A program made the position numbers and the translations under genes. A stretch of DNA of 64,000 nt from Symbiodinium natans (lineage: Eukaryota > Sar > Dinophyceae > Suessiales > Symbiodiniaceae), in NCBI GenBank assembly GCA_905221605.1, contig CAJNDS010002120.1:282501-346500 (forward strand), in the 5' to 3' direction. Each line of letters starts with the position of its first letter. Within the stretch, counting starts at the first letter, position 1. The notes under the pieces are model-generated. The model made no database searches. It had not been told where the DNA came from and saw only the letters and a list, made by a program, of their open reading frames with translations. This document shows, piece after piece, positions 6,105 to 64,000 of this stretch.

Positions 6105-6639
6105 TCTGCATCTTTCCTCCCGAATTGCAAGACGCGCCCCCAAAGAGTCCCGTCGATCCATCGCTTTAGAATGCTGACAACTTCCATCCCCAAATATTCC
6201 AAAAGGAAGATCCCACAATTTTGCTGGTCACTCTTGTGGCATATCACCCTACCCCGGACAATGCTCACGTGCGGCCTTACAAAGATAAGGGACCCCAAAT
6301 TTAAAAAAAAATAGATTCTAACCCTAAACCCTAAACACTAAACCACTATAATCAGGACCCCAACAAGGGTCCCCCTGCTGGAACCACACAAAACGAAACC
6401 GCCAAAAATAGATTCCCTTATTGATCAGGACCCCAACAAGCCTAAACCCTAAACTACCACTAGAAGAGGGATGGCCCGAAAGCATCGATTTGCCGTGCGT
6501 TGACTCCATGCACTTGACTCTTTGTAATCGAACTGTATGCACTTGGAGAAATGTATGCCCTTACATGGTTGCATAGTCACTTGTACACTGCACTTGTATG
6601 CACTGGAACTGCATGGCATTCAAGTGTGTGGGACCATGG

Positions 6640-8915
6640 TATTTGCGATGGTTTTGGAACCAGCGAATTCGGGGACCATGGTATTTGCGATGGTTTTGGA
6701 ACCGGCGAGTTCGGGGACCATGGTATTTGCGATGCTTTTGGAACCAGCGAATTCGGGGACCATGGTTGTCGCGATGGTTTTGGAACCAGCGAATTCGGGG
6801 ACCATGGTATTTGCGATGCTTTTGGAGACCATGGTATTTGCGATGGTTTTGGAACCAGCGAATTCGGAGACCATGGTATTTGCGATGCTTTTGGAAGCAG
6901 CGAATTCGGGGACCATGGTATTTGCGATGCTTTTGAAAACAGCGACTTCGGGGACTATGGTATTTGCCATGCTTTCGAAAACAGCGAATTCGAAAACATC
7001 ATCCCCAAGTTGTTTGCGAGGATTTCGAAGCTCCACAATTCCGCGCCCACGTTATTTACGAGGATTTCGAAGCCCCACAGTTCCGCGCCCACGTTATTTG
7101 CAAGGGTTTCGAAGCCCGAGAATTCCGCGCCCACGTTATTTGCTAGGTTTTCAAAGCCCCAGAATTCCGCGCCCATGTTATTTGCGAGGTTTTGAAAGCC
7201 CCGGCGTACTACGTCTGTACTACAAAAGTCGACTTTCCAGCCACGGAAGCTCCGGGTGTGGGGACCATGGTATTTGCGATGGTTTTGGAACCAGCGAATT
7301 CGGGGACCATGGTATTTGCGATGCTTTTGGAAGCAGCGAATTCGGGGACCATGGTATTTGCGATGCTTTTGAAAACAGCGACTTCGGGGACTATGGTATT
7401 TGCGATGCTTTCGAAAACAGCGAATTCGAAAACATCGTCCCCAAGTTGTTTGCGAGGATTTCGAAGCTCCACAATTCCGCGCCCACGTTATTTACGAGGA
7501 TTTCGAAGCCCCACAGTTCCGCGCCCACGTTATTTGCAAGGGTTTCGAAGCCCGAGAATTCCGCGCCCACGTTATTTGCTAGGTTTTCAAAGCCCCAGAA
7601 TTCCGCACCCATGTTATTTGCGAGGTTTTGAAAGCCCCGGCGTATTACGTCTGTACTACAAAAGTCGACTTTCCAGCCACGGAAGCTCCGGGTGTGGGGA
7701 CCATGGTATTTGCGATGGTTTTGGAACCAGCGAATTCGGGGACCATGGTATTCGCGATGGTTTTGGGGAACCAGCGAGGTCGGGGACCATGGTTGTCGCG
7801 CTGGTTTTGGAACCAGCGAATTCGGGGACCATGGTATTTGCGATGGTTTTGGAACCAGGACCATGGTATTTGCGATGGTTTTGGAAAAACCAGCAAAAGA
7901 CAAAAACATCCCCGTGTCTTCACGCGCGCGGAAGTCCGTTACCGTGCTATTTGCGGTGTTTTCAAGCGTGCAGATGTCCGTTACCGTGCTCTTTGCGGTG
8001 TTTTTCAAGCGCCCAGATGTCCGTTACCATGCTACTTGCGGTGTTTTTCAGGCGCCCAGATGTCCGTTACCATGCTATTTGCGGTGTTTTCCACCACCCA
8101 GATGTCCGTCACCATGCTATTTGCGGTGTTTTTCAGCACCCAGATGTCCGTCACCATGCTATTTGTGGTGTTTTCAAGCATGTCCGGAATTCCGCTTCCA
8201 TGCTATTTGCGAGGTTTTCGCATGTCCGGAATTCCACTTCCATGCTATTTGCGGTGTTTTCATGCGCCCAAATGTCCGTTACCATGCTACTTGCGGTGTT
8301 TTCAAGCGCCCAGATGTCCGTTACCATGCTCTTTGCGGTGTTTTCTAGCATGTCCGGAATTCCGCTTCCATGCTATTTGCGAGGTTTTCGCATGTCCGGA
8401 ATTCCGCTTCCATGCTATTTGCGAGGTTTTCAAGCATGTCCGGAATTCCGCTTCCATGCTATTTGCGAGGCTTTCGCATGTCCGGAATTCCGCTTCCATG
8501 CTATTTGCGGTGTTTTCATGCGCCCAGATGTCCGTTACCATGCTACTTGCGGTGTTTTCAAGCGCCCAGATGTCCGTTACCATGCTCTTTGCGGTGTTTT
8601 CAAGCATGTCCGGAATTCCGCTTCCATGCTATTTGCGAGGTTTTCGCATGTCCGGAATTCCGCTTCCATGCTATTTGCGAGGTTTTCAAGCATGTCCGGA
8701 ATTCCGCTTCCATGCTATTTGCGAGGTTTTCGCATGTCCGGAATTCCGCTGCCATGCTATTTGCGGTGTTTTCAAGCGCCCAGATGTCCGTTACCGTGCT
8801 ATTTGCGGTGTTTTCGCGCGCGCGGAATTCGGCTTCCATGCTATTTGCGGTGTTTTCAAGCGCCCAGATGTCCGTTACCATGCTATTTTGCGGTGTTTTC
8901 AGACGCCCGGGGCGT
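6640..8915 (+). repeat. 42-bp minisatellite with diverged sub-families
   Basis: About 54 units of 42 bp. Three sub-families occur in blocks: GAATTCGGGGACCATGGTAT type (6640-6990, 7262-7420, 7698-7890), GAGGATTTCGAAGCCCCACA type (6990-7200, 7425-7636) and CGGAATTCCGCTTCCATGCT or CAGATGTCCGTTACCATGCT type (7910-8915). All share a core near ATTTGCGAGGTTTTC. Because 42 is divisible by three, reading frames stay open across the array, but this is not evidence of a protein. Confidence 0.9.
6826..7697 (+). repeat. Higher-order 436-bp direct duplication within the 42-bp array
   Basis: 6826-7261 and 7262-7697 are near-identical, each ending in a CCGGCGTACTACGTCTGTAC segment related to the 61-bp repeat. 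The offset is 436 bp. Confidence 0.85.
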
Positions 8916-9250
8916 CCGCAGCGTACTACATCCGTACTACAAAAAGTCGACTTTCCAGCCACGGAAGCTCCGCGCGGAAGCTCCGGGCGTCCCCGACGTA
9001 CTACATTTGTACTACAAAAGTCGACTATCCAGCCACGGAAGCTCCGGGTGTCCGCGGCGTACTACATTTGTACTACAAAAGTCGACTTTCCTGCCACGGA
9101 AGCTCCGGGTGTCCGCGGCGTACTACGTTTGTACTACAAAAGTCTACTTTCCAGCCACGGAAGCTCCGGGTGTCCCCGGCGTACTACGTCTGTACTACAA
9201 AACTCGACTTTCCAGCCACGGAAGCTCCGCGTGTCCGTACTACAAAAGTC
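8916..9250 (+). repeat. 61-bp tandem repeat, about five units
   Basis: Units contain GTACTACAAAAGTCGACTTT then CCAGCCACGGAAGCTCCGGG. GTCGAC (or variants) recurs at 9020, 9081, 9142 and 9203, exactly 61 bp apart. Single copies also occur at the ends of the 436-bp duplications. Confidence 0.9.
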
Positions 9251-9815
9251 GACTTTGGCACCGTGACCACGCCGAAACCCGCAGAGGGGTTACGTTCGTA
9301 TGTCAAAAAAACGCAAAAACACGATGGTTTTGGCACCGCGCCAACGCCGAAACCCGCAGAGGGGTTACGTTCGTATGTCAAAAAACGCAAAAACACGATG
9401 GTTTTGGCACCGCGCCAACGCCGAAACCCGCAGAGGGGTTACGTTTGTATGTCAAAAAAGGCAAAAACACGATGGTTTTGGCACCGCGCCAACGCCGAAA
9501 CCCGCAGAGGGGTTACGTTTGTATGTCAAAAAAGGCAAAAACACGATGGTTTTGGCACCGCGCCAACGCCGAAACCCGCAGAGGGTTGTCTGCGCCCACG
9601 AAAAAAAGTTCCAAAAACGACGGTTTTAGCACCGCGACCCGGCGATTACCCGCAGAGGGTTGTCCGCGGTCAGAAAGAAACGTCAAAAAACGACGGTTTT
9701 GGCACTGCGACCACGCCGAAACCCGCAGAGGGTTGTCCGCGGACACAAAGAAACGTAAAAAAACGACGGTTTTAGCACCACGACCACGCCGAAACCCGCA
9801 GAGGGTTGCAATCCC
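9251..9815 (+). repeat. 73-75-bp tandem repeat, about eight units
   Basis: CCCGCAGAGG recurs at 9278, 9353, 9427, 9501, 9575, 9649, 9722 and 9795. Units include GATGGTTTTGGCACCGCG and an A-rich tract. Divergence increases towards the right end. Confidence 0.9.
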
Positions 9816-9906
9816 GATTGGCGATGTCAACCCAGCCCGCCGCCTTAGAAAGAGTAATTTTAATTTAGAAATCTAGGACTGGGTACGAAGGTCTAGGCAA
9901 TTCACT

Positions 9907-10233
9907 CATTGCAATTCACTCTATGCAATTCACTCTATGCACTTCACTCTATGCACTTCACTCTATGCACTTCACTCTATGCACTTCACTCTATGCACTT
10001 CACTCTATGCACTTGACTCTGTGCACTTCACTCTATGCACTTCACTCTATGCACTTCACTCTATGCACTTCACTCTATGCGCTTCACTCTATGCACTTCA
10101 CTCTGTGCACTTGACTCTATGCACTTCACTCTATGCACTTCACTCTGTGCGCTTCACTCTATGCACTTCACTCTATGCACTTCGCTCTATGCGCTTCACT
10201 CTATGCACTTCACTCTATGTACTTCACTCTATG
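9907..10233 (+). repeat. 14-bp tandem repeat
   Basis: About 23 copies of CACTCTATGCACTT with a few substitutions. Three units equal 42 bp, so all frames read as repeated 14-residue peptides. This is treated as non-coding. Confidence 0.95.
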
Positions 10234-12339
10234 TTGTTGGGTCAGAGGGCTCCGCACGGAAGAACCCTTCGCGATGCTTTCGGGAATAATACGGACCCCA
10301 ACAAGGTCTCCCTGCTGACTCATGGACAGCACGGCTCCCGCGAGGGCGGCGCTTCTGGGATGCCACTCTTGGCAGCCTCTCGGTCGGCGCCGGCAGTGAA
10401 CTCGCGGTGCGTCGGAGGGCTGGAGCCTGGAATTCAAGGTAGACTACTATTTGCTTAAGAACCCACAAAAGTACACAAAAAAATGATATATATATATATA
10501 TATATATATATTTTTTTTATCTATCTATCTATCTATCCCCCTATTACCCTCATAGGGAAGAATTTTGGGGTTCTTAAGCCAACAGTATTAGAGCCTTGGA
10601 CAAAGAGGGTTTGGATGCCTGGGAAGATGCTTAAAGATTCAGGCCGTTTAGGCAATTTCGGCTCAGGGTCGAAACGCACGTAAGCGCGCGACAGCATGGA
10701 ATGTGCCTTAACTCACCCCGACCCCTTCATCTTTGAAACACGTAAACTGCGTAACATAGTCCCAACTCTCCCTTCGCCCCAAAGAACGTGCCTGCGGCGG
10801 CCGACAGAACTTCCGCAAGGTCTGGAACGCGACTCCGCTGCGAACTGGGTGGCTCCTTTCAACCAAGGCCACTGATTTCAATTTTCACCTTCAGACTTGC
10901 ACGCAAGCTTAAGGGTACGCTCTGCGTTACACTGCATGTGCTAGTTGGTGGGGCCCTCAGGAGGGTGCGCAGCTCTTCTTTCTTTCGTCACTCACTGAGC
11001 AGCCGCAGCTTCAGCTCGGGTTGCTTCTCTGACAGTGCTGCGCAGGCTGCGATCAGCTAAAAGTGCAGCAAGCGACTGTATGCGCTAGAGAGCTCACTAG
11101 GTTGCACAGATGGTCATGCAGGGGTTGCAATAGGTCTGCAAATAAAGACACGCAAGCCAAGGCCAGTCATCCCTGATGTTGAAAAAGAGATGCTTCCACT
11201 CCTTTCTCGCCCCCTTCTCCAGCCTTCAGCTCCTCGCTTAGGTCGAGGAGATCCTCCATTGGCTGGGCCAGGGCAGTGCCGCCTCTGCAACTTAAAAGCA
11301 GGGCGTTTTTTTGCTTGATTGAACCGATTCTGAATCCGAATCCCAGGAAGCAAGCCCACCGGAGAAAGAACCGTTTCACACACCCAAAGCTGAGTGTGAG
11401 CTTGCACGACCACCCAAGCCTTGAGAATTTACAGACGAACCAAACATAAACTGAACAAAAAACCAAAGCCTGAGTGAAACTATGAGATAAAGTGTGAGGT
11501 AAAGCTGTTTCAGAACTAACGGTTTGCTCTGTACCCAGCTGGGGGCTACTTGCTTTACGCAAGCTTTCCGACACCATTTCTCGGGCTGTAAATTATACCG
11601 GCGAAGACCCCTTAGAAGTGGGATGGCGTTCACAGATGAAAGCACAAATTGGCTTTACCCCGCAAGAAAGAATAAGTCCTAGACTTCATAAGGTATCAAA
11701 TGTGCGGGAAGCTCTTGGCAAGGAGTTGGAAAACACATGTTCAACCATGCTAACAGATGGGAGTTGGAAGTCAGCCAGTATGTCACAGACATAAACGCGA
11801 CAGCAAGCTCATGACATCAAGAGATTTGCCGTTCTGGTCATGACTACTTAATGAATCGTCGGAGGTGGCGCGCCCGCGAGCATGGCGCGTCCTGTACACG
11901 CAGGACGCGCGAGGAGGAAGAAGAAGAAGAAGAAGTTAGGCTGAATCGGGTGTAGTGGGAGAACAAGCTGCTACGTTCTCTTGGCGCCTGCGGAACTGGA
12001 AGCAGCTGGCGTGCCATCTTTCCTCGCCATGCAGAGTGCGACAAGTTGTGACCAGCTAGACAAAAAACACACAAACATACATATTTATATACATATATAT
12101 ATATATATATACCTATTTAGTTCTCCATCTTTTCGCGGAATCGCGAACTGCAAACAATGGACGCCGCAGCTGATGCTTGCCACTACTCCTGCTTTGTGGA
12201 AAACGAGGATCTCAGGCACAGCTTTCGTTCGAAATCCAGTCCAACTGCATGCTGGCTCGAAGTTCCACTTGCAGCTTTTGTTCGAATAGCCTGTCAGTCT
12301 CCAACTCCATCAAACCCGCAAGTCATGAACACGAAGAAA
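10234..12339. other. No recognisable gene
   Basis: Contains microsatellites and a GAAGAAGAAG run near 11920. No open frame with a recognisable domain. Confidence 0.5.
10484..10538. repeat. TA and CTAT microsatellites
   Basis: (TA) run, T run, then (CTAT)n. Similar short TA runs lie at 12083-12112, 15176-15245 and 43228-43252. Confidence 0.9.
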
Positions 12340-15833: not shown

Positions 15834-15964
15834 CCCTAAACCCTAAACCCTAAACCCTAAACCCTAAACCCTAAACCCTAAACCCTAAACCCTAAACCCT
15901 AAACCCTAAACCCTAAACCCTAAACCCTAAACCCTAAACCCTAAACCCTAAACCCTAAACCCTA
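15834..15964. repeat. Telomere-like array, CCCTAAA strand, longest and purest
   Basis: About 18 perfect CCCTAAA units. Confidence 0.97.
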
Positions 15965-16079
15965 GGCAGCCTGCCCGGGATCCGCGGCTCTGGGAGCGTC
16001 GCTCCCGCGCGGGCATCACTGCATGCCATGGCCACCAGGCCAAGAGAGAGAACCCCCAATAAAGAGTAGGATCCCCCCT

Positions 16080-16220: not shown

Positions 16221-16809
16221 TAAAGGATGCAGAATTGAGGGAACAAAAAAGCGATCTGAAAGCCTGCAAGAACAGCCATGCAAGAGGCTGTAAGAGGTCT
16301 TGAAGGGGTGGAGAGAGAGGGGCTTTGACGGAGAGTTCTTGGGAGCTGCTTTTCTCGGAACTCAAGGGTTCTTTAGTTGGGGCTGAGTGGCGCATAAGCC
16401 TCGATGCGAGGGTCGCGTCACGTGTTTGAAGATCATGACACCTCTCGAAGTCCAGCTGGATGCTGCAGCGCACAGGAGAGAGCTTCGTTCAGCAAGGCTG
16501 ATGCGCCGACATGCCGGCGGACGACTCAGAACACCCAGAGGCCCGATTCAGGAGCACTTGACCCGGCGAGCTTGGGCAAAATCGAGATAAACACCCGACC
16601 CTCGTACCCTAGCTCCCGCAGGACTCCAGCATTGAGTCGTTTTGGGATGAGCAGCCCCAAGCAATCCCACAAGGCGGACTTCAACTCCAAGGACTTTGAG
16701 GCGCAGCGCATTCTCGGATCTCCGCACTACGCTATTTCTCCGCTAGTCTACCAGCTCAAACTCCAGGAGCTTGCGGTTTGCAGCCTCGCCAAACACGATA
16801 CGAGAGCCA

Positions 16810-16895
16810 GGGTTTAGGGTTTAGGGTTTAGGGTTCAGGGTTTAGGGTTTAGGGTTTAGGGTTTAGGGTTTAGGGTTTAGGGTTTAGGGTTTAGG
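16810..16895. repeat. Telomere-like array, TTTAGGG strand
   Basis: About 12 units. Confidence 0.95.
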
Positions 16896-24458: not shown

Positions 24459-24562
24459 TTAGGGCTCAGGGTTTAGGGTTTAGGGTTTAGGGTTTAGGGT
24501 TTAGGGTTTAGGGTTTAGGGTTTAGGGTTTAGGGTTTAGGGTTTAGGGTTTAGGGTTTAGGT
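24459..24562. repeat. Telomere-like array, TTTAGGG strand
   Basis: About 14 units, nearly perfect. Confidence 0.96.
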
Positions 24563-57054: not shown

Positions 57055-58004
57055 ACCCTGTCTCGCAGGGCGATTGCAAGTTATGGTTAGACTTGGTGTG
57101 GTTTGGGCTTTCAAGGTTTTTGGGCCTCTCGGGCGTTAGGACTGTCTACTTTATGGCAATCCTATTCGGAAGGGTTCGGTGTTGGCTACAGCTGAAACGC
57201 TGTCGGCAATGTTGGATCTAGTTTTCAGCCTGCTGTGCAACTTCACAAACTGCAGCCAGCACTGCAACACTTGCATGCGCAAGCTTCTTGCAAACCACGC
57301 GCGACTGGATGAGTTGGGAGATATTTGGGGATGGTTGCCAAGAGGCCAAGAAATTGTAGTATTGCCCTACTCGAACTCGAACTCGATTCCGCAGCGGTCT
57401 GGTCTGACCTACTAGCTAGCTGTTGTTCATGACATATGTCACGGCCGCTCTGTGGCGGCGGCTAACAGCTTCGGGTATGGACAGCAAGAGACGTCCCGCA
57501 GGAACCGGAGTTCAACTAGACTGCAGGCAAAACGGTCTCAAGCGCAACAGGGCCTACCTGGACCTACCGTGAACAAGAAAGAAGCGCGTGCTCACAAACT
57601 CAAACGGACGGTGTATGTACAAGGGATACTATTCTACGGCCGGTCTCACAGTTCGCTCACTCACAGGGCTAAACAGTGTGGGCACATTTGTGCCGCGAAT
57701 GTCCTGGGGCCGATGAGGGAGCGGCACCCCCGTGCTGATGGAGCAACGCATGACTGCATATGGTGGCATGGTTGAGAATAGGACTCGGTACACTAAAGAA
57801 GAAGAGCACAAAAACACTCGGGGAGAGTGTAGCTATCTCATTTTCGCATCGCTCAAGACTCCGTAGCAGGGCGACCCGGACATGAAATGCCGGTATCATG
57901 GTTCTGTGGCCGAAAGGTCGGCTTCACATGTGCCTTCCCTGTACATAGGAACAGAGACAAAGATTCAGACAGGGTTGCAAGCCTGTCCCCCCGTGCACCC
58001 TAGA

Positions 58005-58020
58005 TGGGGGTGCACCCCCA
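58005..58020. repeat. 16-bp perfect palindrome at the LINE 3' end
   Basis: TGGGGGTGCACCCCCA equals its own reverse complement. It lies about 30 bp beyond the stop of the USP-like region, and a related TAGGGTGCACGG lies beside it. It could form a hairpin in the element's 3' UTR, but no function is shown. Confidence 0.6.
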
Positions 58021-58048
58021 CTTTTGTGAGAAAAATAAGCTCTCATCG

Positions 58049-58420
58049 TCAGGCCGATCCGCCTTCCCCAGCAGGGGGCCTGCGGATGCAGCCAAGCACA
58101 TAACAGTTGGACTGGATTTCGGGGCTTAAGGTTTCAAGCCTTTCCGATGCGACACCGTCGTCCATGTACCAGGCATCTGTCCTGCCCGGTATCAAGCCAA
58201 CGGTTCTGTAGTGCCCTGTGAGAACTGTTTCACCCAGATGCACAATGATGGAAATGAGGTCATAGGCAAGCCAATCACACGCTATGCTGCTTTCATTTCT
58301 GAAGATCGGCAGGTGGACACAGCGATTGTGGAATGCAAGAGGCACACGGGTCTTCCTCGTGACACCATTGGTCGTGGTATATCTAGGTAGAAATGTGAGT
58401 CGGAGCTGTGCATAGCGCAT
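58049..58420 (-). CDS. Ubiquitin-specific-protease-like (C19) domain, C-terminal half with His box
   Basis: This continues the USP domain in the +1 frame relative to the N-terminal half; the two open frames overlap near 58390-58420. It contains VHLGETVLTGHYRTVGL followed by AWYMDDGV and NCYVLGCIRR. That is the USP His box pattern (H-x-G, then GHY, then W-Y-x-x-DD, then YxLxYxR). The catalytic His codon is at 58211-58213 and the DD gives the candidate Asp. It ends at the stop at 58049. The frame break relative to the N-terminal half suggests this copy is a broken gene, though a sequencing indel cannot be excluded. The order of Cys box, QxDxxEF and His box in adjacent frames on one strand makes the family call firm. 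Confidence 0.75.
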   Translation of the reverse strand: MRYAQLRLTFLPRYTTTNGVTRKTRVPLAFHNRCVHLPIFRNESSIACDWLAYDLISIIVHLGETVLTGHYRTVGLIPGRTDAWYMDDGVASERLETLSPEIQSNCYVLGCIRRPPAGEGGSA

Positions 58421-58883
58421 GCGGTTGGGCCTGCAGGCGCCAGCTAAGGATGAGGGTGTCCAGCTCCCCGTCTTGGATACCTCCAGGTGCTGCCAGAAGT
58501 AGCAATGGTGCAGCGGGCTCCCTGATTTCAGTAGTGCATCCCTCCTCAACTGCAACTCTCGCCTCCCAGTGAACGAGGCTATCAGTCCAAGCAAGCTTAG
58601 GGATGATGAACTGTATGAATTCACTCACGTCATGCTGTCTGGGCTGCGCCCAGCCTAGCATGTACATGCGGAGAAACATGGCTGCATCCCAGTGCGTTTT
58701 GGCAAGCGCCTTCTGCCAAGCATCAGGTATGCGGCTCCCCGGCCTGAGCTGTGCTTGCCACAGGGTGGCAGTAATGACGGAGTTGATGTAGCAAGTGTTG
58801 CCACTATTCTTAAGCTTGAGGCGAGAGACACTCGGCACACCAGCAGGTGGCCGTGCACTTCCTGCAGCGCTCAGATGTTTTCC
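58383..58883 (-). CDS. Ubiquitin-specific-protease-like (C19) domain, N-terminal half with catalytic Cys
   Basis: The frame is -1 relative to the preceding accessory ORF. It contains a USP Cys box, KNSGNTCYINSVI, with the candidate nucleophile Cys codon at 58791-58793. About 50 residues later is the second USP hallmark, QHDVSEFIQF (Q-x-D-x-x-EF, about 58617-58637). The segment then reaches a region resembling the USP finger/palm (LDTLILSWRLQAQPHALCTAP) and stops at 58383. USP enzymes remove ubiquitin from proteins. The same frame is open further upstream to 59768, but that stretch is Gly/Pro/Arg-rich low complexity antisense to nothing and overlaps the accessory ORF, so I treat it as a shadow. 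Separate translation or a -1 frameshift at GGAAAAC would be needed to express it. Confidence 0.75.
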   Translation of the reverse strand, partial: GKHLSAAGSARPPAGVPSVSRLKLKNSGNTCYINSVITATLWQAQLRPGSRIPDAWQKALAKTHWDAAMFLRMYMLGWAQPRQHDVSEFIQFIIPKLAWTDSLVHWEARVAVEEGCTTEIREPAAPLLLLAAPGGIQDGELDTLILSWRLQAQPHALCTAPTHIST

Positions 58884-59737
58884 AGGGCCTTTTGCAGTGC
58901 CATTGCCAGTCCGTGGCGTTGCTGGTTTGGCGGCTGCAGTTGCGCTCCCACCACATTCCACACCGCGCAGTTGGCCAACTGTCGCAGTTTCTGATGCAGG
59001 ATGTTTGCTCTCGGATCTCGCATGGCTACTTCGATGAGGAACACTGCTTTGTCGCCTTCCTGGGGCTCTTGCTTGGGACGCCTTTGGGCGCAGAACCTGG
59101 TGACCAGATCCGGAAGACACAGCTCGGCGACCTGGTTGATGAGCTCCGTCGCCTCTTCCACCTTCAGGCTCTTGGCTGTCGCCGACGGCTCCACCTGTTT
59201 GGTGGCCGAGTTCCACTCCTGATACACGAAGCGCTTCTGCTGGTCGAGCCACTGATGCTTCATCGCATTCTCCACGGCCGTGGGATCTCCCACCATCAGT
59301 TGGACTCTTGCCACGACCTCTTTCAGCAGGAGGCCCAGCGCAACGATTCTCATCGGGGGGACGTTCTCTCCTTTCTTCTGTTTTTGTTGCCATTCCTGCC
59401 CCGCCTTGAAAAGCGGCAGCAATATGGTTCCTGGGCCTTGTTGCTGGAGGTGGAAAGTGAAGGATGTGTCCAGGCGTAGACGGTTCAGGGCGTCCTCCTG
59501 CTGCAACGACAGATTTGCCAGGAGCGTCACCACCGAGTTCAGGTTCTCGTCTGCAATTTGCCGCCGGCCTCCCCGCTGTCCTCGCCGGGCCGCTTTGGGT
59601 CGCTTGTTCGGTGCGTTCTCGGTCTCCCGGTCCATTTCTCTCGGCTGCTTCGAGGTCTCTCTCATGTTCGTCGCTAGCCCTGGTAGTAGGTTGCCGAAGA
59701 CGCTCACCACTTCCGTCGTCATGTTCACAGTGTAGTC
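58871..59737 (-). CDS. Basic accessory protein of the LINE, function unknown
   Basis: An open frame of about 285 residues in the same frame as the endonuclease-RT ORF, directly after its TAG. The first ATG is at 59722 (MTTEVVSVFGN). The N-terminus carries a basic, Gly/Arg-rich patch (RPKAARRGQRGGRRQ), plausible for RNA binding. The rest is amphipathic and helix-rich, with conserved-looking Trp residues (HQWLDQQKRFVYQEWN, NCAVWNVVGAQL). Its composition is that of a folded protein. I know of no named domain that it matches; from general knowledge, similar ORFs follow RT genes in dinoflagellate LINEs. It ends at TGA 58871-58873, eleven bases before which lies GGAAAAC (58877-58883), where a -1 shift would enter the USP frame. 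It could be made by stop readthrough, by reinitiation, or not at all. Confidence 0.7.
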   Translation of the reverse strand, partial: DYTVNMTTEVVSVFGNLLPGLATNMRETSKQPREMDRETENAPNKRPKAARRGQRGGRRQIADENLNSVVTLLANLSLQQEDALNRLRLDTSFTFHLQQQGPGTILLPLFKAGQEWQQKQKKGENVPPMRIVALGLLLKEVVARVQLMVGDPTAVENAMKHQWLDQQKRFVYQEWNSATKQVEPSATAKSLKVEEATELINQVAELCLPDLVTRFCAQRRPKQEPQEGDKAVFLIEVAMRDPRANILHQKLRQLANCAVWNVVGAQLQPPNQQRHGLAMALQKALENI

Positions 59738-62700
59738 CTATCGGGCACATTGGAAGATCACATTGCATTGGAAGTAATGTCTGGAGGGGGAGGACCTGTC
59801 ACACCACGGGCAGATGCCATTTCGGAGGAGTCGGGGCTTGACCTGTGCACATCGCTCCTCAAGTTTGCCGTTGGCGGTGACTGCCCACACGTCCTTGTGG
59901 GCCCTAACTATGTGTCGCTTCAGAGCCGTGGGATCGGCGATCCATCGCTTGCAAACACAGCAGTGTTGCTTGAGGGACGACACAACATCGGCATCTAGCA
60001 GACTTTTCCAGCCTTGTTGCCGAGCTACATCAAGAACCAGCTTTTGGGCTATGGGAGGCGGCTCATTTGCAGTGGCCTCCTCTGGAGCTTTTGGATTGGC
60101 GCTAGTATCTGCTTCGGGGCCGACCGCGGCTCCCTGAGTACTGCATTCCGGATAAAGAACAGGGCAGTATCCTTTTTCAATATGTGCTTTAAGCCCAATC
60201 CATGCCCCGTATTTGAATTTACAGAAGGCACACTGGGGCAGACCATTCAGTGCGTGGTTTGCCGGATCAAAATTGAGCAGTTCTGGCTTATCTTCTGGGT
60301 GCTTCCATGCCTTATGCTGTCGGAGGCTAGTGATAGTGCGAAATTGCTGACTGCAACGCGGACAGGTATAAGGGTCTGACTCCTTATCTTCAGGAAGCTG
60401 CTCACCTGCATTCATCGAATGGAGTGAGTTGATAGCCAGCGCGAGCTGCGCCCGGACCTGTGGAAGGGCCCTAATGTCGCTGGGGCACTCTGCTGCAACT
60501 GTCTCAAGTGCGTCATGCATTCTCTGGCCTTGGTGAGCGAGCGCCTGTAGGGGGTCCTCAGCATTGAGATGCTTCTGGATCTGTTCATTGGTCACTAGGG
60601 TAAGATGCGCCGGCTTTTTGGCAATAGCCCGCATCTGTCTGGCAGCCATTGCACGAAGATGCTTGCGTCCTGTGGGTCTAACACCCACCGCCAGTAGCCC
60701 GTGCGCTGCTGAGCTCCACACCCCGGCTCTCCAGATTTGGTACCTGGGACGGTTGTGCGTTACGCGTCTAGAGTTGATGGCTTTGCGAAGCTGGCTATAT
60801 TGACCCCTCGCCTTACGCATACGTAGCTGGACAGTTTTCTCCTGGGCATCTCTATAGGAAATGACGGTACCAAGGTACTGATGTGTTTTCCTGAGGGGGA
60901 TCAGAATCTGCTCGCCGTGTTGCATGAAGGCAAGGTGTGGGAGTCTATCCTTGAAGACTTTAAGTTTCTGCAAAATCCTAATGGCATCTGCTCCCTTGGC
61001 GTGACACAGCACGACCGATTTGGTTGCGCTGAGAGTCATACCGTGGTCGTTAAAGGTTTGCACGACTTTTTGGATGCCGCTAATGGCACCCAGAAGGTCT
61101 TCGGCGCTTTTTAACGTCCATGCAGCTAAGGCGTCGTCGGCGTAAAAAGTGAACAGCTGCGTTACCCAGTCCCAGCCTAGGCGCTCCGCTGGTGTGTCGA
61201 TGATAGCAATTGTGTGTGCCACAAACAAATACGGCGCGACCGTACAGCCTTGTTTGATGCCTCGCGTGGTCGTGACGTGGTCTTCATGAACGCCCACTGA
61301 GCAGTGACACCTTGCCTCAAAATGGAACTGCATAAGAAGTTGCACCAGCGTTTCGGAGACCCCTAGGCGTCTCAGGCTAGTGGCAAGGGCAGTGCGAGGT
61401 ACATTGTCGAACGCCCCCTCAAGGTCAAGGGAGAAGCATATGCCTCCTGCGCATTTAACCTGGGTAGCTCCGGCATGAAGGTCATATATGCTTTGTTTGC
61501 TCAGGGTCGCATACGCACGTGCCTCTCTCAGGTGGTTATGCACTCTCAGTAAGGCGTCTAGAACCCCTCTGCCGGCAGTATATGCAAATTGCGGTCGAGT
61601 GACCAGCGCTTCCTCAAGAAGTGGTCGGATGTGTTCTCTCAGCAGAGCACATACCGATTTCGAGAGAGGGTGGGAGAGTCCTATGGGACGAAGCCCGGAC
61701 GGGCGGCTGGGGTCTTTCTGTGGTTTAGGCAACCATACGAGGTATGTGTCTTTCCACACGTGTGGGATGACGCAGAGGGAATCCTCCCCCCAGGATCGCA
61801 TCAGGATGGGTTCCAGTGTTTTGGCTACCTGGTCACGGCACAATCTCCAAACTGCTGCCGGGGCCGACATCTTCGGCACCCCTTTGCGAAATGGTAGTTT
61901 TCCTAGGGCCCAAACGAGGTCTTTGGCCTGAACAAGAATGGGTTCAGTGACTCGGTGATTGGGCAAATAGTCTTCTCCTTGACAAAACTTGTTTCTGCTG
62001 TGCTTAATGAGCTCAGCCAGTTGTTCTTTGGGAGTGAGGATTTCTCCCTTTTCGCTGCGAATGTGTGTGCGCGCGAAGGGTTTCCAGGGAGCTAATTTTC
62101 TAGCGCTCATCCACACTTTCCTTTGATCACCCTTAGCGGCAGCAACTTGTAGGTCCTCGGCGACAGCCTGCAGCTTTTCACGCTTAATTTTCTTGGCAGT
62201 TTGTTTCATCGCTTTAGAGGCCACGCGAAACTCAGTGTACTTTTTCCATTTCCGGAGAGTTTCGATTAAGCTGTTCGCTTTGGTGGATTTCCATTCCTTG
62301 TACTTAGCCCACATCTCTTTCGCGGTGTGCTTAAACTGCGGATTCTGCGAAACGCGGTTGTCAACTTCAGGTTCGGGAGGGTAGACGGTTTGCATGTGTT
62401 CTTTCATGATCTCATCCACCTGCCGCGTAAAGCTGTGAAGATGCAAGTCAGGGTCCAGCTTCTGAATATCCGCGTCGATGAGGTGCTTTAACTTCTTAGC
62501 CCGATCATCTGCCTGCGCAATGGAGTCTTGGATGCATTGCCTAGACGCCATCGAAGGTTTGACTGGGTTCGGGAGACGACATGGCGCGACTCTACGGATG
62601 TGAGCCTGCACTGGGATGTGGTGATTGGCCTTCCACTTTCCGAGGGCGACTTGATGCATGGGTCTGCTGTGTCTAGCAGTGCGAGTCGCGTGCTGAACCC

Positions 62701-64000
62701 TACACGCAACGAAATCCAATTGTGTTTTGGTGCCTTGGCGCACGCACGTATGTGCCGGAGTGCAGTTCCACGTATTGAGGAGAGTGAGGCCGAAGTCCTG
62801 GAGTATTCCCAGAAAGTCATCTTCGTCAGGCGATCCCTCTACTTTGGCTACAACGGCACTACCTATCAATCCCCTCGAGGTTTTGATGGAGCAGTTGAAG
62901 TCTCCCGCAATGATCAAGTCGTTCCGTTGTGGACTCTTCATGATGCTAGACCGTATCGCATCCCAGATTGAGGCCCGAGCTTTCAGGTTCTCGGCTTTGT
63001 CAATGTTTGTCCTCCACACATGCTGGTAGACATTCAGAAGATCGGAGCCGTTCTGTTGGTGATGCAGTCGAACCGAGAGTACTCTGCCTTGCCTAAGAAC
63101 CCTGTAACTAACATTATCTTGCTTGCAGACATTCTGATGAATCAGAGTGGCAACTCCTGAGCATTTGTCTTTGCCTGTAGCCCCTGAGGAGACGACGAAC
63201 CAGGGGCCGGACGAGAAAGTGCGGCACCCCTCCTGTTTCCAGTGTGTTTCTTGCACGAACACAATGTCAAAGTCATCTGGTTTCTCACTTAACCATGACA
63301 TGAGTTCTTGCCAGGCCGCCTGCGACCCCCCGCTCATGTTCCAGGTGAGACATCTAAGGTGAGATGCTTTGTCAGATTTGGGATGCTTTGTGGGTTTAGC
63401 CGGCCGGTCATTCGGCCCCAGCTGGTGTATGCCCCCTGTGGTTTTTGTCAGTGTTTCCCTAGTGTACCATCTGCCCTTATAGTGAGTGCCGCCTGTGGCA
63501 TAGGCTCGTGCGCGAGCTCGTCGCAGCGATCTCTTGGCGATCCACCCGATGCTGTTGTGGTGATTACGTATTGCCTGGCCAGTGTCTTCGCCCATTCTAT
63601 TGGACTGTTGGGGCCGATGTTGTGTGGCTCCCACCACGGTACTGGAACCCGTGGTAACCCTCACGTCTGCTCGACCCCCATTTGCTGTCACGAAGCTTCC
63701 ACAAAGGATAAGAATCCACATCCAGAAGAGACTTCGAAAGCTTGGGGCCCAGCCGCTGGACTTGGGACCAGCGCGGCTCGGTGATGTGCGTCTGGCGGGC
63801 TCACCCCTCTGTGTTGTAAGTATTTTAGTAGTGCACGTGGCATGTGTGCTGATGATGTAGGGTCTCCTTCTGTAGCAACCTCTGATTCTCCTGGTGCAGA
63901 GCCATTTAGTTAGTCTATCTCTTTGCAACGATAGAAGCCTGCCTGCATAACCATACCCACCGACCAAAAACACTCCCAGCAGAAGAATGTGTCCCCATCT
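59738..64000 (-). CDS. LINE ORF2-like protein: AP endonuclease, reverse transcriptase, C2H2 fingers (5' partial)
   Basis: At least 1411 residues; the frame stays open to the window edge, so the true start is probably outside. Numbering is from the GTG at 63973. There is a hydrophobic patch near residues 82-97, then an endonuclease/exonuclease/phosphatase domain from about 206 (CLTWNMSGG, the metal-binding FVQETHW, and GDFNCS near 356). The reverse transcriptase follows: RPIGLSHPLSKS, then SLDLEGAFDN near 853 with the first catalytic Asp, GIKQGCTVAP, and FYADDALAAW near 944 with the YADD active site. The C-terminus has several Cys/His fingers (CPRCSQQF..HKAWKH near 1204, CAFCKFKY near 1258, CCVCKRWI..H near 1338, CPWC near 1388), probably for RNA or DNA binding. 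All main catalytic motifs look intact. The ORF ends at TAG 59738-59740, and the next ORF continues in the same frame. Confidence 0.9.
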   Translation of the reverse strand, partial: RWGHILLLGVFLVGGYGYAGRLLSLQRDRLTKWLCTRRIRGCYRRRPYIISTHATCTTKILTTQRGEPARRTSPSRAGPKSSGWAPSFRSLFWMWILILCGSFVTANGGRADVRVTTGSSTVVGATQHRPQQSNRMGEDTGQAIRNHHNSIGWIAKRSLRRARARAYATGGTHYKGRWYTRETLTKTTGGIHQLGPNDRPAKPTKHPKSDKASHLRCLTWNMSGGSQAAWQELMSWLSEKPDDFDIVFVQETHWKQEGCRTFSSGPWFVVSSGATGKDKCSGVATLIHQNVCKQDNVSYRVLRQGRVLSVRLHHQQNGSDLLNVYQHVWRTNIDKAENLKARASIWDAIRSSIMKSPQRNDLIIAGDFNCSIKTSRGLIGSAVVAKVEGSPDEDDFLGILQDFGLTLLNTWNCTPAHTCVRQGTKTQLDFVACRVQHATRTARHSRPMHQVALGKWKANHHIPVQAHIRRVAPCRLPNPVKPSMASRQCIQDSIAQADDRAKKLKHLIDADIQKLDPDLHLHSFTRQVDEIMKEHMQTVYPPEPEVDNRVSQNPQFKHTAKEMWAKYKEWKSTKANSLIETLRKWKKYTEFRVASKAMKQTAKKIKREKLQAVAEDLQVAAAKGDQRKVWMSARKLAPWKPFARTHIRSEKGEILTPKEQLAELIKHSRNKFCQGEDYLPNHRVTEPILVQAKDLVWALGKLPFRKGVPKMSAPAAVWRLCRDQVAKTLEPILMRSWGEDSLCVIPHVWKDTYLVWLPKPQKDPSRPSGLRPIGLSHPLSKSVCALLREHIRPLLEEALVTRPQFAYTAGRGVLDALLRVHNHLREARAYATLSKQSIYDLHAGATQVKCAGGICFSLDLEGAFDNVPRTALATSLRRLGVSETLVQLLMQFHFEARCHCSVGVHEDHVTTTRGIKQGCTVAPYLFVAHTIAIIDTPAERLGWDWVTQLFTFYADDALAAWTLKSAEDLLGAISGIQKVVQTFNDHGMTLSATKSVVLCHAKGADAIRILQKLKVFKDRLPHLAFMQHGEQILIPLRKTHQYLGTVISYRDAQEKTVQLRMRKARGQYSQLRKAINSRRVTHNRPRYQIWRAGVWSSAAHGLLAVGVRPTGRKHLRAMAARQMRAIAKKPAHLTLVTNEQIQKHLNAEDPLQALAHQGQRMHDALETVAAECPSDIRALPQVRAQLALAINSLHSMNAGEQLPEDKESDPYTCPRCSQQFRTITSLRQHKAWKHPEDKPELLNFDPANHALNGLPQCAFCKFKYGAWIGLKAHIEKGYCPVLYPECSTQGAAVGPEADTSANPKAPEEATANEPPPIAQKLVLDVARQQGWKSLLDADVVSSLKQHCCVCKRWIADPTALKRHIVRAHKDVWAVTANGKLEERCAQVKPRLLRNGICPWCDRSSPSRHYFQCNVIFQCAR

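What the first reader, a model, noticed from the sequence alone, without database searches (positions are those of the whole stretch)
58049..64000. LINE retrotransposon carrying a ubiquitin-specific protease (C19-like) downstream of its reverse transcriptase
On one strand and in order: endonuclease, RT with YADD, Cys/His fingers, a basic ORF, then a USP Cys box (GNTCYINS, Cys codon 58791-58793), QHDVSEF and a His box (VHLGE..TGHYR..WYMDDG, His codon 58211-58213). OTU-type cysteine proteases are known in some LINEs, but a C19 deubiquitinase attached to a LINE is not something I recall being described. A mobile element with its own deubiquitinase could protect its proteins from host turnover or act on ubiquitinated chromatin. 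That role is inference.
Basis: partly seen in the sequence, partly recalled or inferred. Interest (0 to 1): 0.88.

Follow-up and report, generated by a model that had tools for sequence, protein, structure and literature searches.

The report
Giant LINE with built-in deubiquitinase

Summary
The window copy is a slightly broken 10.4-kb LINE flanked by a 13-base target-site duplication; it starts 3.7 kb beyond the window and ends at window 57370. Six copies elsewhere in the genome keep one open frame of 3,111-3,125 codons: Tpt1/KptA RNA 2'-phosphotransferase, EEP endonuclease, non-LTR RT, Cys/His fingers, linker, C-terminal USP (UCH E 1.2e-8). 27 of 28 polymerase loci are followed by the USP; 0 of the 150 best-scored RT loci are. 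USP dN/dS is 0.08 (RT 0.05, EEP 0.08). Twelve diverged families keep the USP Cys and His, and RT and USP distances correlate. The "basic ORF" is a separate gene nested in the polyprotein ORF, +1 frame: present in 14 of 14 polyproteins examined, dN/dS 0.06 against 1.57 in the polyprotein frame. The host is a dinoflagellate (205 spliced-leader copies, control 0), probably Symbiodinium natans. Most likely function, inferred: a cis-acting deubiquitinase protecting the element's own RNP. Ten open-access literature searches found no LINE with USP or Tpt1. New variant of a known kind.

The parts
57357..57369 (-). 3' copy of a 13-bp target-site duplication; its partner flanks the 5' end at contig C1808 350248-350260
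   Evidence: same 13 bases on both sides, read by eye from the printed flanks; 12-14-bp duplications at 5 of 6 copies read at both ends
57370..58048 (-). 3' UTR ending in a short GGAATCGAG(TTCGAG)n tail; no poly(A)
   Evidence: shared by 10 of 11 copies compared, flanks differ beyond it
58049..58432 (-). C-terminal half of the USP (UCH) domain with His box (His codon 58213-58211), in a shifted frame in this copy
   Evidence: UCH E 3.3e-4 alone; small deletion relative to L029 and L030
58386..58871 (-). N-terminal half of the USP domain: Cys box (Cys codon 58793-58791) and QHDVSEF
   Evidence: UCH E 7.1e-4 alone; Cys and His boxes kept in 12 of 12 families
58871..59722 (-).
   Evidence: dN/dS 0.06, homologues in 14 of 14 polyproteins examined, same frame offset in 95 of 110 loci
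59738..64000 (-). Polymerase part of the polyprotein ORF, open beyond the window; here ended early by a frame-breaking small deletion
   Evidence: 98% identical to copies with ORFs of 3113-3125 aa
60296..60373 (-). C2H2-type zinc finger (first of several Cys/His motifs)
   Evidence: PF23165 22.5 bits (cut-off 24), PF13894 20.1 bits (cut-off 27): both under cut-off
60992..61726 (-). Non-LTR reverse transcriptase with YADD
   Evidence: PF00078 E 9.7e-20; PDB relatives include LINE-1 ORF2p
62681..63349 (-). EEP (apurinic-type) endonuclease
   Evidence: PF03372 E 2.4e-6, over its cut-off

Best explanation
SHOWN: This is a degenerate full-length copy of a dinoflagellate LINE bounded by target-site duplications. 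Unbroken copies encode one giant polyprotein: N-terminal region, Tpt1/KptA RNA 2'-phosphotransferase, EEP endonuclease, RT, Cys/His fingers, linker, C-terminal USP-type ubiquitin protease. A second protein (283 aa here, 283-389 aa across families) is encoded in the +1 frame within the linker region. The USP, the nested gene and the Tpt1 domain are under purifying selection. INFERRED: The element inserts by target-primed reverse transcription. The USP is an active cis-acting deubiquitinase that removes ubiquitin from the element's own roughly 350-kDa polyprotein and RNP, delaying proteasomal disposal long enough for the RNP to reach its target. The Tpt1 domain removes 2'-phosphates left on element RNA after cleavage and ligation, so that the RT can read through. 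The nested protein is a gag-like RNA-binding partner, made from an internal ATG, possibly on a spliced-leader trans-spliced RNA. The first part is near certain (about 0.95); the confidence given is for the whole, with the cis-deubiquitinase role.
For: One ORF with PTS_2-RNA E 3.3e-33, RVT_1 E 9.8e-20, UCH E 1.2e-8, EEP E 9.6e-6; a second copy agrees, its EEP slightly under cut-off. RVT_1 and UCH in one ORF in 12 families, EEP seen in 9 of the 12 (L023 stands for L021). Element ends and TSDs. 27 of 28 polymerase loci followed by USP, 0 of the 150 best-scored RVT_1 loci. USP dN/dS 0.083 (L029 vs L030) and 0.098 in a second family (L021 vs L023); 0.07-0.24 over the USP pairs that have at least 20 changes. 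Catalytic Cys and His kept in 12 of 12 families and in 20 of 20 and 18 of 18 public proteins whose profile match covers them. RT-USP distance matrices correlate (Mantel r 0.55, p 4e-4, 12 families). Nested gene: dN/dS 0.060 vs 1.57 in the polyprotein frame, cross-family blastp down to 4e-68 while the polyprotein-frame linker shows no cross-family match, and the polyprotein frame stays open although synonymous shuffling nearly always closes it (0-168 of 5000 open).
Against: No activity, expression or localisation data. Purifying selection shows use, not substrate. At least one related locus (C491, L047) has a USP-like region in which neither Cys box nor GHY is recognisable. A 43%-identical relative (C1101, L031) has its USP-like match in a separate ORF that gives no Pfam hit at E 0.01. 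The zinc-knuckle CxxC pairs of many host USPs (recalled) are not seen by eye. 22 of 132 nested-gene loci have no USP found within 2.5 kb, and 45 of 134 USP loci have no nested-gene match at that search's sensitivity, although several of these (e.g. C190, C172, C1861, C2066) do hold the nested ORF. Near-identical USP pairs with few changes give dN/dS up to 0.65. The nested gene of C513, one of the six long-ORF copies, holds a TAG. No structure could be predicted.
Confidence: 0.6

Rival explanations
1. The USP-fold domain mainly processes the element's own polyprotein, as papain-like proteases of some RNA viruses do, releasing endonuclease-RT from the N-terminal and C-terminal parts; deubiquitination is secondary.
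For: The polyprotein is giant (3,111-3,125 codons in six copies) with a C-terminal protease; the linker before the USP is poorly conserved in its frame, free for cleavage sites. A weak CoV_peptidase match beside UCH (E 0.059).
Against: The CoV_peptidase match is far below its cut-off (13.2 vs 26 bits). No search for a conserved cleavage motif was made. USPs in general cut after ubiquitin (recalled).
Confidence: 0.15
2. The USP acts in trans on host targets, for example ubiquitinated silencing or repair factors or chromatin at the tandem-repeat target, easing integration.
For: 9 of 11 copies have a roughly 107-bp tandem repeat or a similar site on at least one side (partly by eye), so the element deals with a specific chromatin; the Ginger1 paper proposes such a role for OTU and Ulp1 domains of DNA transposons (passages of PMC2836005).
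Against: Dinoflagellates have little histone-based chromatin (recalled). No host target is known.
Confidence: 0.15
3. The USP domain is a ubiquitin-binding or structural module; catalysis is dispensable.
For: L047 region (C491): profile match (50.2 bits in total, two stretches) with Cys box and GHY not recognisable.
Against: Cys and His kept in 12 of 12 families compared and in all public proteins covering them; USP dN/dS 0.08.
Confidence: 0.08
4. Chance adjacency: a truncated host USP retrocopy lies next to a LINE.
For: In this copy the USP N-half is in another frame than the polymerase.
Against: 27 of 28 loci linked, one ORF in unbroken copies, inside the TSDs, LINE-type USPs on one side of a branch from 4 host USPs (84/96 support, midpoint root).
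Confidence: 0.005

Closest known systems
SymbioLINE-Dnmt (dinoflagellate LINE with a captured cytosine methyltransferase; PMC5890265, section 6 and passages seen)
   Same: Dinoflagellate EEP-RT LINE with TSDs, no poly(A), a captured enzyme under purifying selection
   Different: Its captured enzyme is a DNMT mostly in an ORF upstream of the RT ORF; the main text has no occurrence of ubiquitin, protease or phosphotransferase. Here one giant ORF with Tpt1 and USP, plus a nested gene
LINEs with OTU cysteine protease
   Same: Deubiquitinase-type cysteine protease in a LINE
   Different: OTU is a different cysteine protease family from C19/USP; element structure not compared here
Ginger1 DNA transposons with OTU or Ulp1, and a Trichomonas transposase_11 + Peptidase C19 protein (PMC2836005, passages)
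   Same: Ubiquitin- or SUMO-type proteases fused to mobile-element enzymes; a C19 case exists for a DNA transposase
   Different: Cut-and-paste DNA transposons, no RT
Host USPs (USP46, USP12, USP35, USP21)
   Same: Best PDB sequence relatives of the domain; Cys, QHD and His boxes
   Different: Only about 250-290 aa; weak sequence match, E 7e-5 to 9e-3
LINE-1 ORF2p and R2-type RT
   Same: Among the 7 PDB sequences matched by the RT region
   Different: No Tpt1, no USP, no nested gene (recalled)
Tpt1/KptA RNA 2'-phosphotransferase
   Same: Positions 3-177 of the 177-position profile, 115.7 bits
   Different: Embedded in a LINE polyprotein

Membership tests
Non-LTR retrotransposon (LINE), EEP type | Non-LTR-type RT | tested here: met
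   PF00078 E 9.7e-20; LINE-1 ORF2p among the PDB matches
Non-LTR retrotransposon (LINE), EEP type | EEP endonuclease N-terminal to the RT | tested here: met
   PF03372 over cut-off in the window and L029, 23.4 vs 24.5 bits in L030; in 9 of 12 families at E 0.01
Non-LTR retrotransposon (LINE), EEP type | No long terminal repeats | tested here: met
   first and last 1000 bases of the window element share no BLAST match longer than 19 bases
Non-LTR retrotransposon (LINE), EEP type | Target-site duplications | tested here: met
   12-14 bp at 5 of 6 copies read at both ends; the sixth, C1781, diverges just after the USP stop
Non-LTR retrotransposon (LINE), EEP type | 5'-truncated copies | tested here: inconclusive
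   USP-end loci without polymerase match exist (C225, C769, C366 and C1968:418960), junctions not read
Ubiquitin-specific protease (C19/USP) | UCH profile match over cut-off | tested here: met
   35.3 bits (L029) to 62.9 bits (L010), cut-off 23.9; the broken window halves are under it
Ubiquitin-specific protease (C19/USP) | Catalytic Cys and His boxes, acidic residue after the His box | tested here: met
   12 of 12 families; public proteins 20 of 20 Cys, 18 of 18 His; not recognisable in the L047 region
Ubiquitin-specific protease (C19/USP) | Deubiquitinase activity | not testable with these tools
   needs an assay
Tpt1/KptA family | PTS_2-RNA profile over nearly its whole length | tested here: met
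   3-177 of 177, 115.7 bits
Overlapping (dual-coding) gene | Selection on the protein of the second frame | tested here: met
   dN/dS 0.060 vs 1.57; 0.259 vs 1.453 in a second family
Overlapping (dual-coding) gene | First frame also kept open | tested here: met
   synonymous shuffling keeps it open in 0-168 of 5000 trials per sequence, 14 sequences
Overlapping (dual-coding) gene | Protein product detected | not testable with these tools
   needs ribosome profiling or mass spectrometry
SymbioLINE-Dnmt | DNMT domain (PF00145) in the upstream ORF | tested here: not met
   no DNMT at E 0.01 in the Pfam scans of 15 ORFs of 14 elements; many of those ORFs were cut at their 5' end by the fetched stretch

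The most novel reading that the evidence does not exclude
A large, old clade of dinoflagellate LINEs forms a virus-like replicon in one RNA: a giant polyprotein with its own RNA-repair enzyme (Tpt1) and a USP that both cuts the polyprotein and strips ubiquitin, plus a gag-like protein encoded entirely inside the polyprotein gene in another frame and made from a trans-spliced subgenomic RNA. It would be, as far as I recall, the first retrotransposon lineage with a fully nested conserved structural gene.
Probability: 0.15. Interest if true: 0.96.

Novelty: new variant of a known kind. Interest (0 to 1): 0.86.

Why it matters
In what I could read, ubiquitin- or SUMO-type proteases of mobile elements are OTU or Ulp1 domains, or a C19 domain beside a DNA transposase (PMC2836005, passages). 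Here a USP is an integral, selected part of a whole LINE clade, which makes the question whether retrotransposons resist host ubiquitin-dependent disposal directly testable. The Tpt1 domain suggests that template RNA is cut and re-ligated before copying. The nested gene is a clean, replicated case of a conserved, fully overlapping gene in a retrotransposon. It also explains public Symbiodinium gene models labelled TRPT1 / 2'-phosphotransferase or left unnamed that are really LINE polyproteins.

Tried and rejected
Chance adjacency, rejected. An independent host USP retrocopy, rejected (one ORF; tree). The 'basic ORF' as an in-frame segment of the polyprotein, rejected: in the window it shares the polymerase frame only because of a deletion. 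A frameshift-made polymerase-nested fusion is not excluded, but the nested frame opens only 6-72 bases before its Met in all 14 cases, with no obvious shared slippery site by eye. P0017, P0029 and P0010 show the nested protein in the protein's own frame, but these are database gene models, so I did not take them as evidence. The first test of a nested frame in P0002 by back-translation was weak (score 50.5; 25 shuffles reached up to 44.9). Viral contigs: no match. C525 (L046), a recurrent 2,937-aa ORF with a Tpt1 match, shows no RT motif in the 830 residues read; not followed. Nested protein: no solved relative at E 1; 7 Pfam families each match 1 of 12 members at E 0.038-0.095. Paper searches: ten; none of the listings shows a LINE with USP or Tpt1, but the library is open-access PMC only, asked for only 2 of 3 terms and one search listed 12 of 5,260 papers, and no search was made for nested genes in LINEs. 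Papers: part 1 of 4 of PMC6338049; section 6 and passages of PMC5890265; passages only of PMC8045281, PMC11453091 and PMC2836005.
Full report
1. The observation. The two USP halves lie in different frames and each hits Pfam UCH alone (E 7.1e-4 and 3.3e-4, both under the curated cut-off).

2. The genome. The window is C1808:282501-346500 of a 759-Mb assembly. It carries the dinoflagellate spliced leader (sequence recalled) 205 times exactly, against 0 for the reversed control. The size lies close to the 761.6-Mb assembly in the column that I take to be S. natans (table passage of PMC8045281 without column heads). A public S. natans gene model (P0029) matches L015 at 99% over 310 residues of its nested protein, and at 95% over 833 and 90% over 425 residues of its polyprotein. 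Species identity is thus probable, not shown.

3. Copies of the element. The read-through USP (273 aa) finds 142 matches in the genome (141 of 364 candidates scored). The polymerase finds 39, which I collapsed to 28 loci by dropping 11 rows that are further pieces of a listed locus. 27 of these 28 have a USP match on the same strand within 8 kb downstream; the exception is a fragment at C1968. By contrast, 0 of the 150 best-scored RVT_1 loci (of 2439 candidates) have one within 10 kb downstream on the same strand (using 134 USP loci after dropping 8 fragment rows); one lies within 10 kb on the other strand (C308). The USP-bearing LINEs are not among these 150, so the comparison is with other LINE types. 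In six copies (C513, C891, C1549, C1781, C223, C602) polymerase and USP lie in one open frame of 3111-3125 codons.

4. Element ends. Ten of eleven copies compared share the sequence after the USP stop for about 0.68 kb, up to GGAATCGAG(TTCGAG)n, and diverge there; the eleventh, C1781, diverges within the first bases after the stop. Six copies read at the 5' side start at AAGCGTCTCGGC. Five of six copies read at both ends have a 12-14-bp target-site duplication, the window copy included (13 bp, partly by eye). The window element spans C1808:339870-350247, about 10.4 kb, and the USP is internal to it. Its first and last kilobases share no long repeat.

5. Domains. A copy with an unbroken frame, cut by fetching at its 5' end (L029, 2854 aa), shows PTS_2-RNA (Tpt1/KptA, E 3.3e-33), EEP (9.6e-6), RVT_1 (9.8e-20) and UCH (1.2e-8), in that order; L030 agrees. 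In the window copy the Tpt1 domain begins 343 bases beyond the window end. The genome search scored 150 of 474 Tpt1 candidates. Three loci with open frames of 4767 aa hold both Tpt1 and UCH (C345, C521, C2296).

6. Other families. Of 19 UCH loci that I fetched because their frame was long (L010-L028), 18 hold an RT motif in the same ORF and one (L028) does not. After removing duplicates, and counting the window family, 12 families remain. All 12 have RVT_1 and UCH in one ORF and 9 of 12 show EEP at E 0.01 (L023 scanned for L021). L013 also has a weak Tpt1 match (E 5.4e-4). This choice by long ORF is biased toward unbroken elements. A further relative, C1101 (L031; polymerase 43% identical), has RT and EEP in one ORF and the USP-like match in another, which gives no Pfam hit at E 0.01. 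Across the 12 families RT identity goes down to 24% and USP identity to 22%. Distances correlate: RT-USP Mantel r 0.55 (p 4e-4), RT-nested 0.63 (p 2e-4), USP-nested 0.44 (p 1e-3), so the parts share a history. In a tree of 17 LINE-type USPs (three of them database proteins, of which P0002 is not shown to be a LINE) and four host USPs of the same genome, the two sets fall on either side of a branch (support 84/96; 86% of bootstrap trees); most inner branches of that tree are weak.

7. Selection. L029 vs L030: USP dN/dS 0.083, RT 0.047, EEP 0.081, Tpt1 0.176, N-terminal region 0.268. USP pairs with at least 20 changes give 0.07-0.24; near-identical pairs with few changes go up to 0.65. L021 vs L023: USP 0.098, RT 0.074. 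Catalytic Cys and His are kept in 12 of 12 families. In public proteins they are kept in 20 of 20 and 18 of 18 rows that cover them. Against this, the L047 region downstream of a nested gene at C491 matches the LINE-USP profile (50.2 bits in total) but has no recognisable Cys box or GHY.

8. The nested gene. In unbroken copies the polymerase frame runs on through the linker into the USP. L029 vs L030: dN/dS 0.060 in the nested frame and 1.57 in the polyprotein frame; 26 of 32 changes fall on the third position of nested codons. L021 vs L023: 0.259 vs 1.453. All 14 polyproteins examined (12 families, two of them twice) have such an ORF (283-389 aa), always +1. The products are homologous across families, with blastp E down to 4e-68; the same stretch in the polyprotein frame has no match between families. 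In L010 the nested ORF runs 25 codons past the USP Cys codon, in L013 and L015 it ends more than 100 codons before it. Genome-wide, 139 matches reduce to 132 loci (7 fragment rows dropped). 110 have a USP or UCH match within 2.5 kb downstream; for these I used 134 loci and 33 of the 149 rows. 95 of the 110 have the same frame offset. Of the 15 others several are broken, but C677 and C804 look unbroken with another offset. 22 nested loci have no USP found, and 45 of the 134 USP loci have no nested match at this sensitivity, though several of them hold the ORF. Shuffling synonymous codons of the nested gene leaves the polyprotein frame open in only 0-168 of 5000 trials per sequence, so both frames are kept. 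In C513 the nested gene holds a TAG. The nested protein has no consistent Pfam match and no PDB match. A basic N-terminus, GKGKG-like in several families, suggests RNA binding (inference).

9. Outside this genome. A database of 5.8 billion proteins gives P0001 and P0002 for the USP alone, and P0003 (2110 aa, 94% over the USP, RVT_1 + UCH) and P0004 for long proteins. Searching with an RT of another family gives 25 proteins: precomputed Pfam shows UCH in 6 of 25; my LINE-USP profile matches 17 of 25, and 8 do not match, some of them apparently frame-broken or mis-modelled. Three bear names: P0010 and P0017 (Symbiodinium sp. CCMP2592) and P0029 (S. natans, TRPT1). P0016 (3723 aa) holds Tpt1, EEP, RT and UCH.

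10. Reading. What it is: a LINE of the EEP type (tested defining features met, except 5' truncation, inconclusive) with three additions: Tpt1, USP and a nested gene. How it works is inferred: the USP as a cis-acting deubiquitinase for a very large, hence vulnerable, polyprotein; Tpt1 as template repair, since fungal/plant-type ligation leaves a 2'-phosphate (recalled); the nested product as the RNP partner. Internal initiation or SL trans-splicing is favoured over frameshifting because the nested frame opens only 6-72 bases before its Met in all 14 cases. That is suggestive, not proof.

11. Known or not. The closest published case that I saw is SymbioLINE-Dnmt (PMC5890265, section 6 and passages). 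A Peptidase C19 beside a DNA transposase was noted in 2010 (PMC2836005, passages). A 2024 review of dinoflagellate genomics has no occurrence of ubiquitin, peptidase or phosphotransferase (PMC11453091, passages). Ten searches of the open-access library listed no LINE with USP or Tpt1 (calls in Tried and rejected). Repbase and subscription journals were not searchable.

Noticed in passing
L047 (C491:316900-318700), third frame: USP-like region after a nested gene in which Cys and His boxes are not recognisable: possible pseudoenzyme family (nested-gene matches of the same score at C34, C1896, C1805)
   Followed up: partly
C1808:346843-347367 (just outside the window) and the 150 scored genome matches: Tpt1/KptA domains are greatly multiplied, in LINE polyproteins and also in recurrent ORFs of about 656 and 2937 aa that look like other repeated families
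   Followed up: partly
Flanks of C891, C513, C602, C1781, C225, C2144, C2478, C2150, C223: 9 of 11 copies have a roughly 107-bp tandem repeat or a GAAACCC-like site on at least one side: target preference
   Followed up: partly
C677 and C804: Nested gene and USP in long frames but with another frame offset than the 95 standard loci
   Followed up: no
window, e.g. 15834-15966, 16808-16895, 24459-24561: Many short interstitial arrays of the plant-type telomere repeat (TTTAGGG) on both strands
   Followed up: no
window 6588-9836 and 9808-10311: Dense nested tandem repeats with periods of 14, 42, 61 and 74 bases among others
   Followed up: no
L008 (C1423), L028 (C1578): UCH genes without RT, the first in two nearby copies, with a similar downstream region by eye: a repeated host-type family
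   Followed up: no
P0010, P0029 (public Symbiodinium gene models): LINE polyproteins annotated as unnamed protein or as TRPT1 / 2'-phosphotransferase
   Followed up: yes
C479:102078-129887: Six spliced-leader copies in two runs of three, about 3.8 kb apart within each run
   Followed up: no
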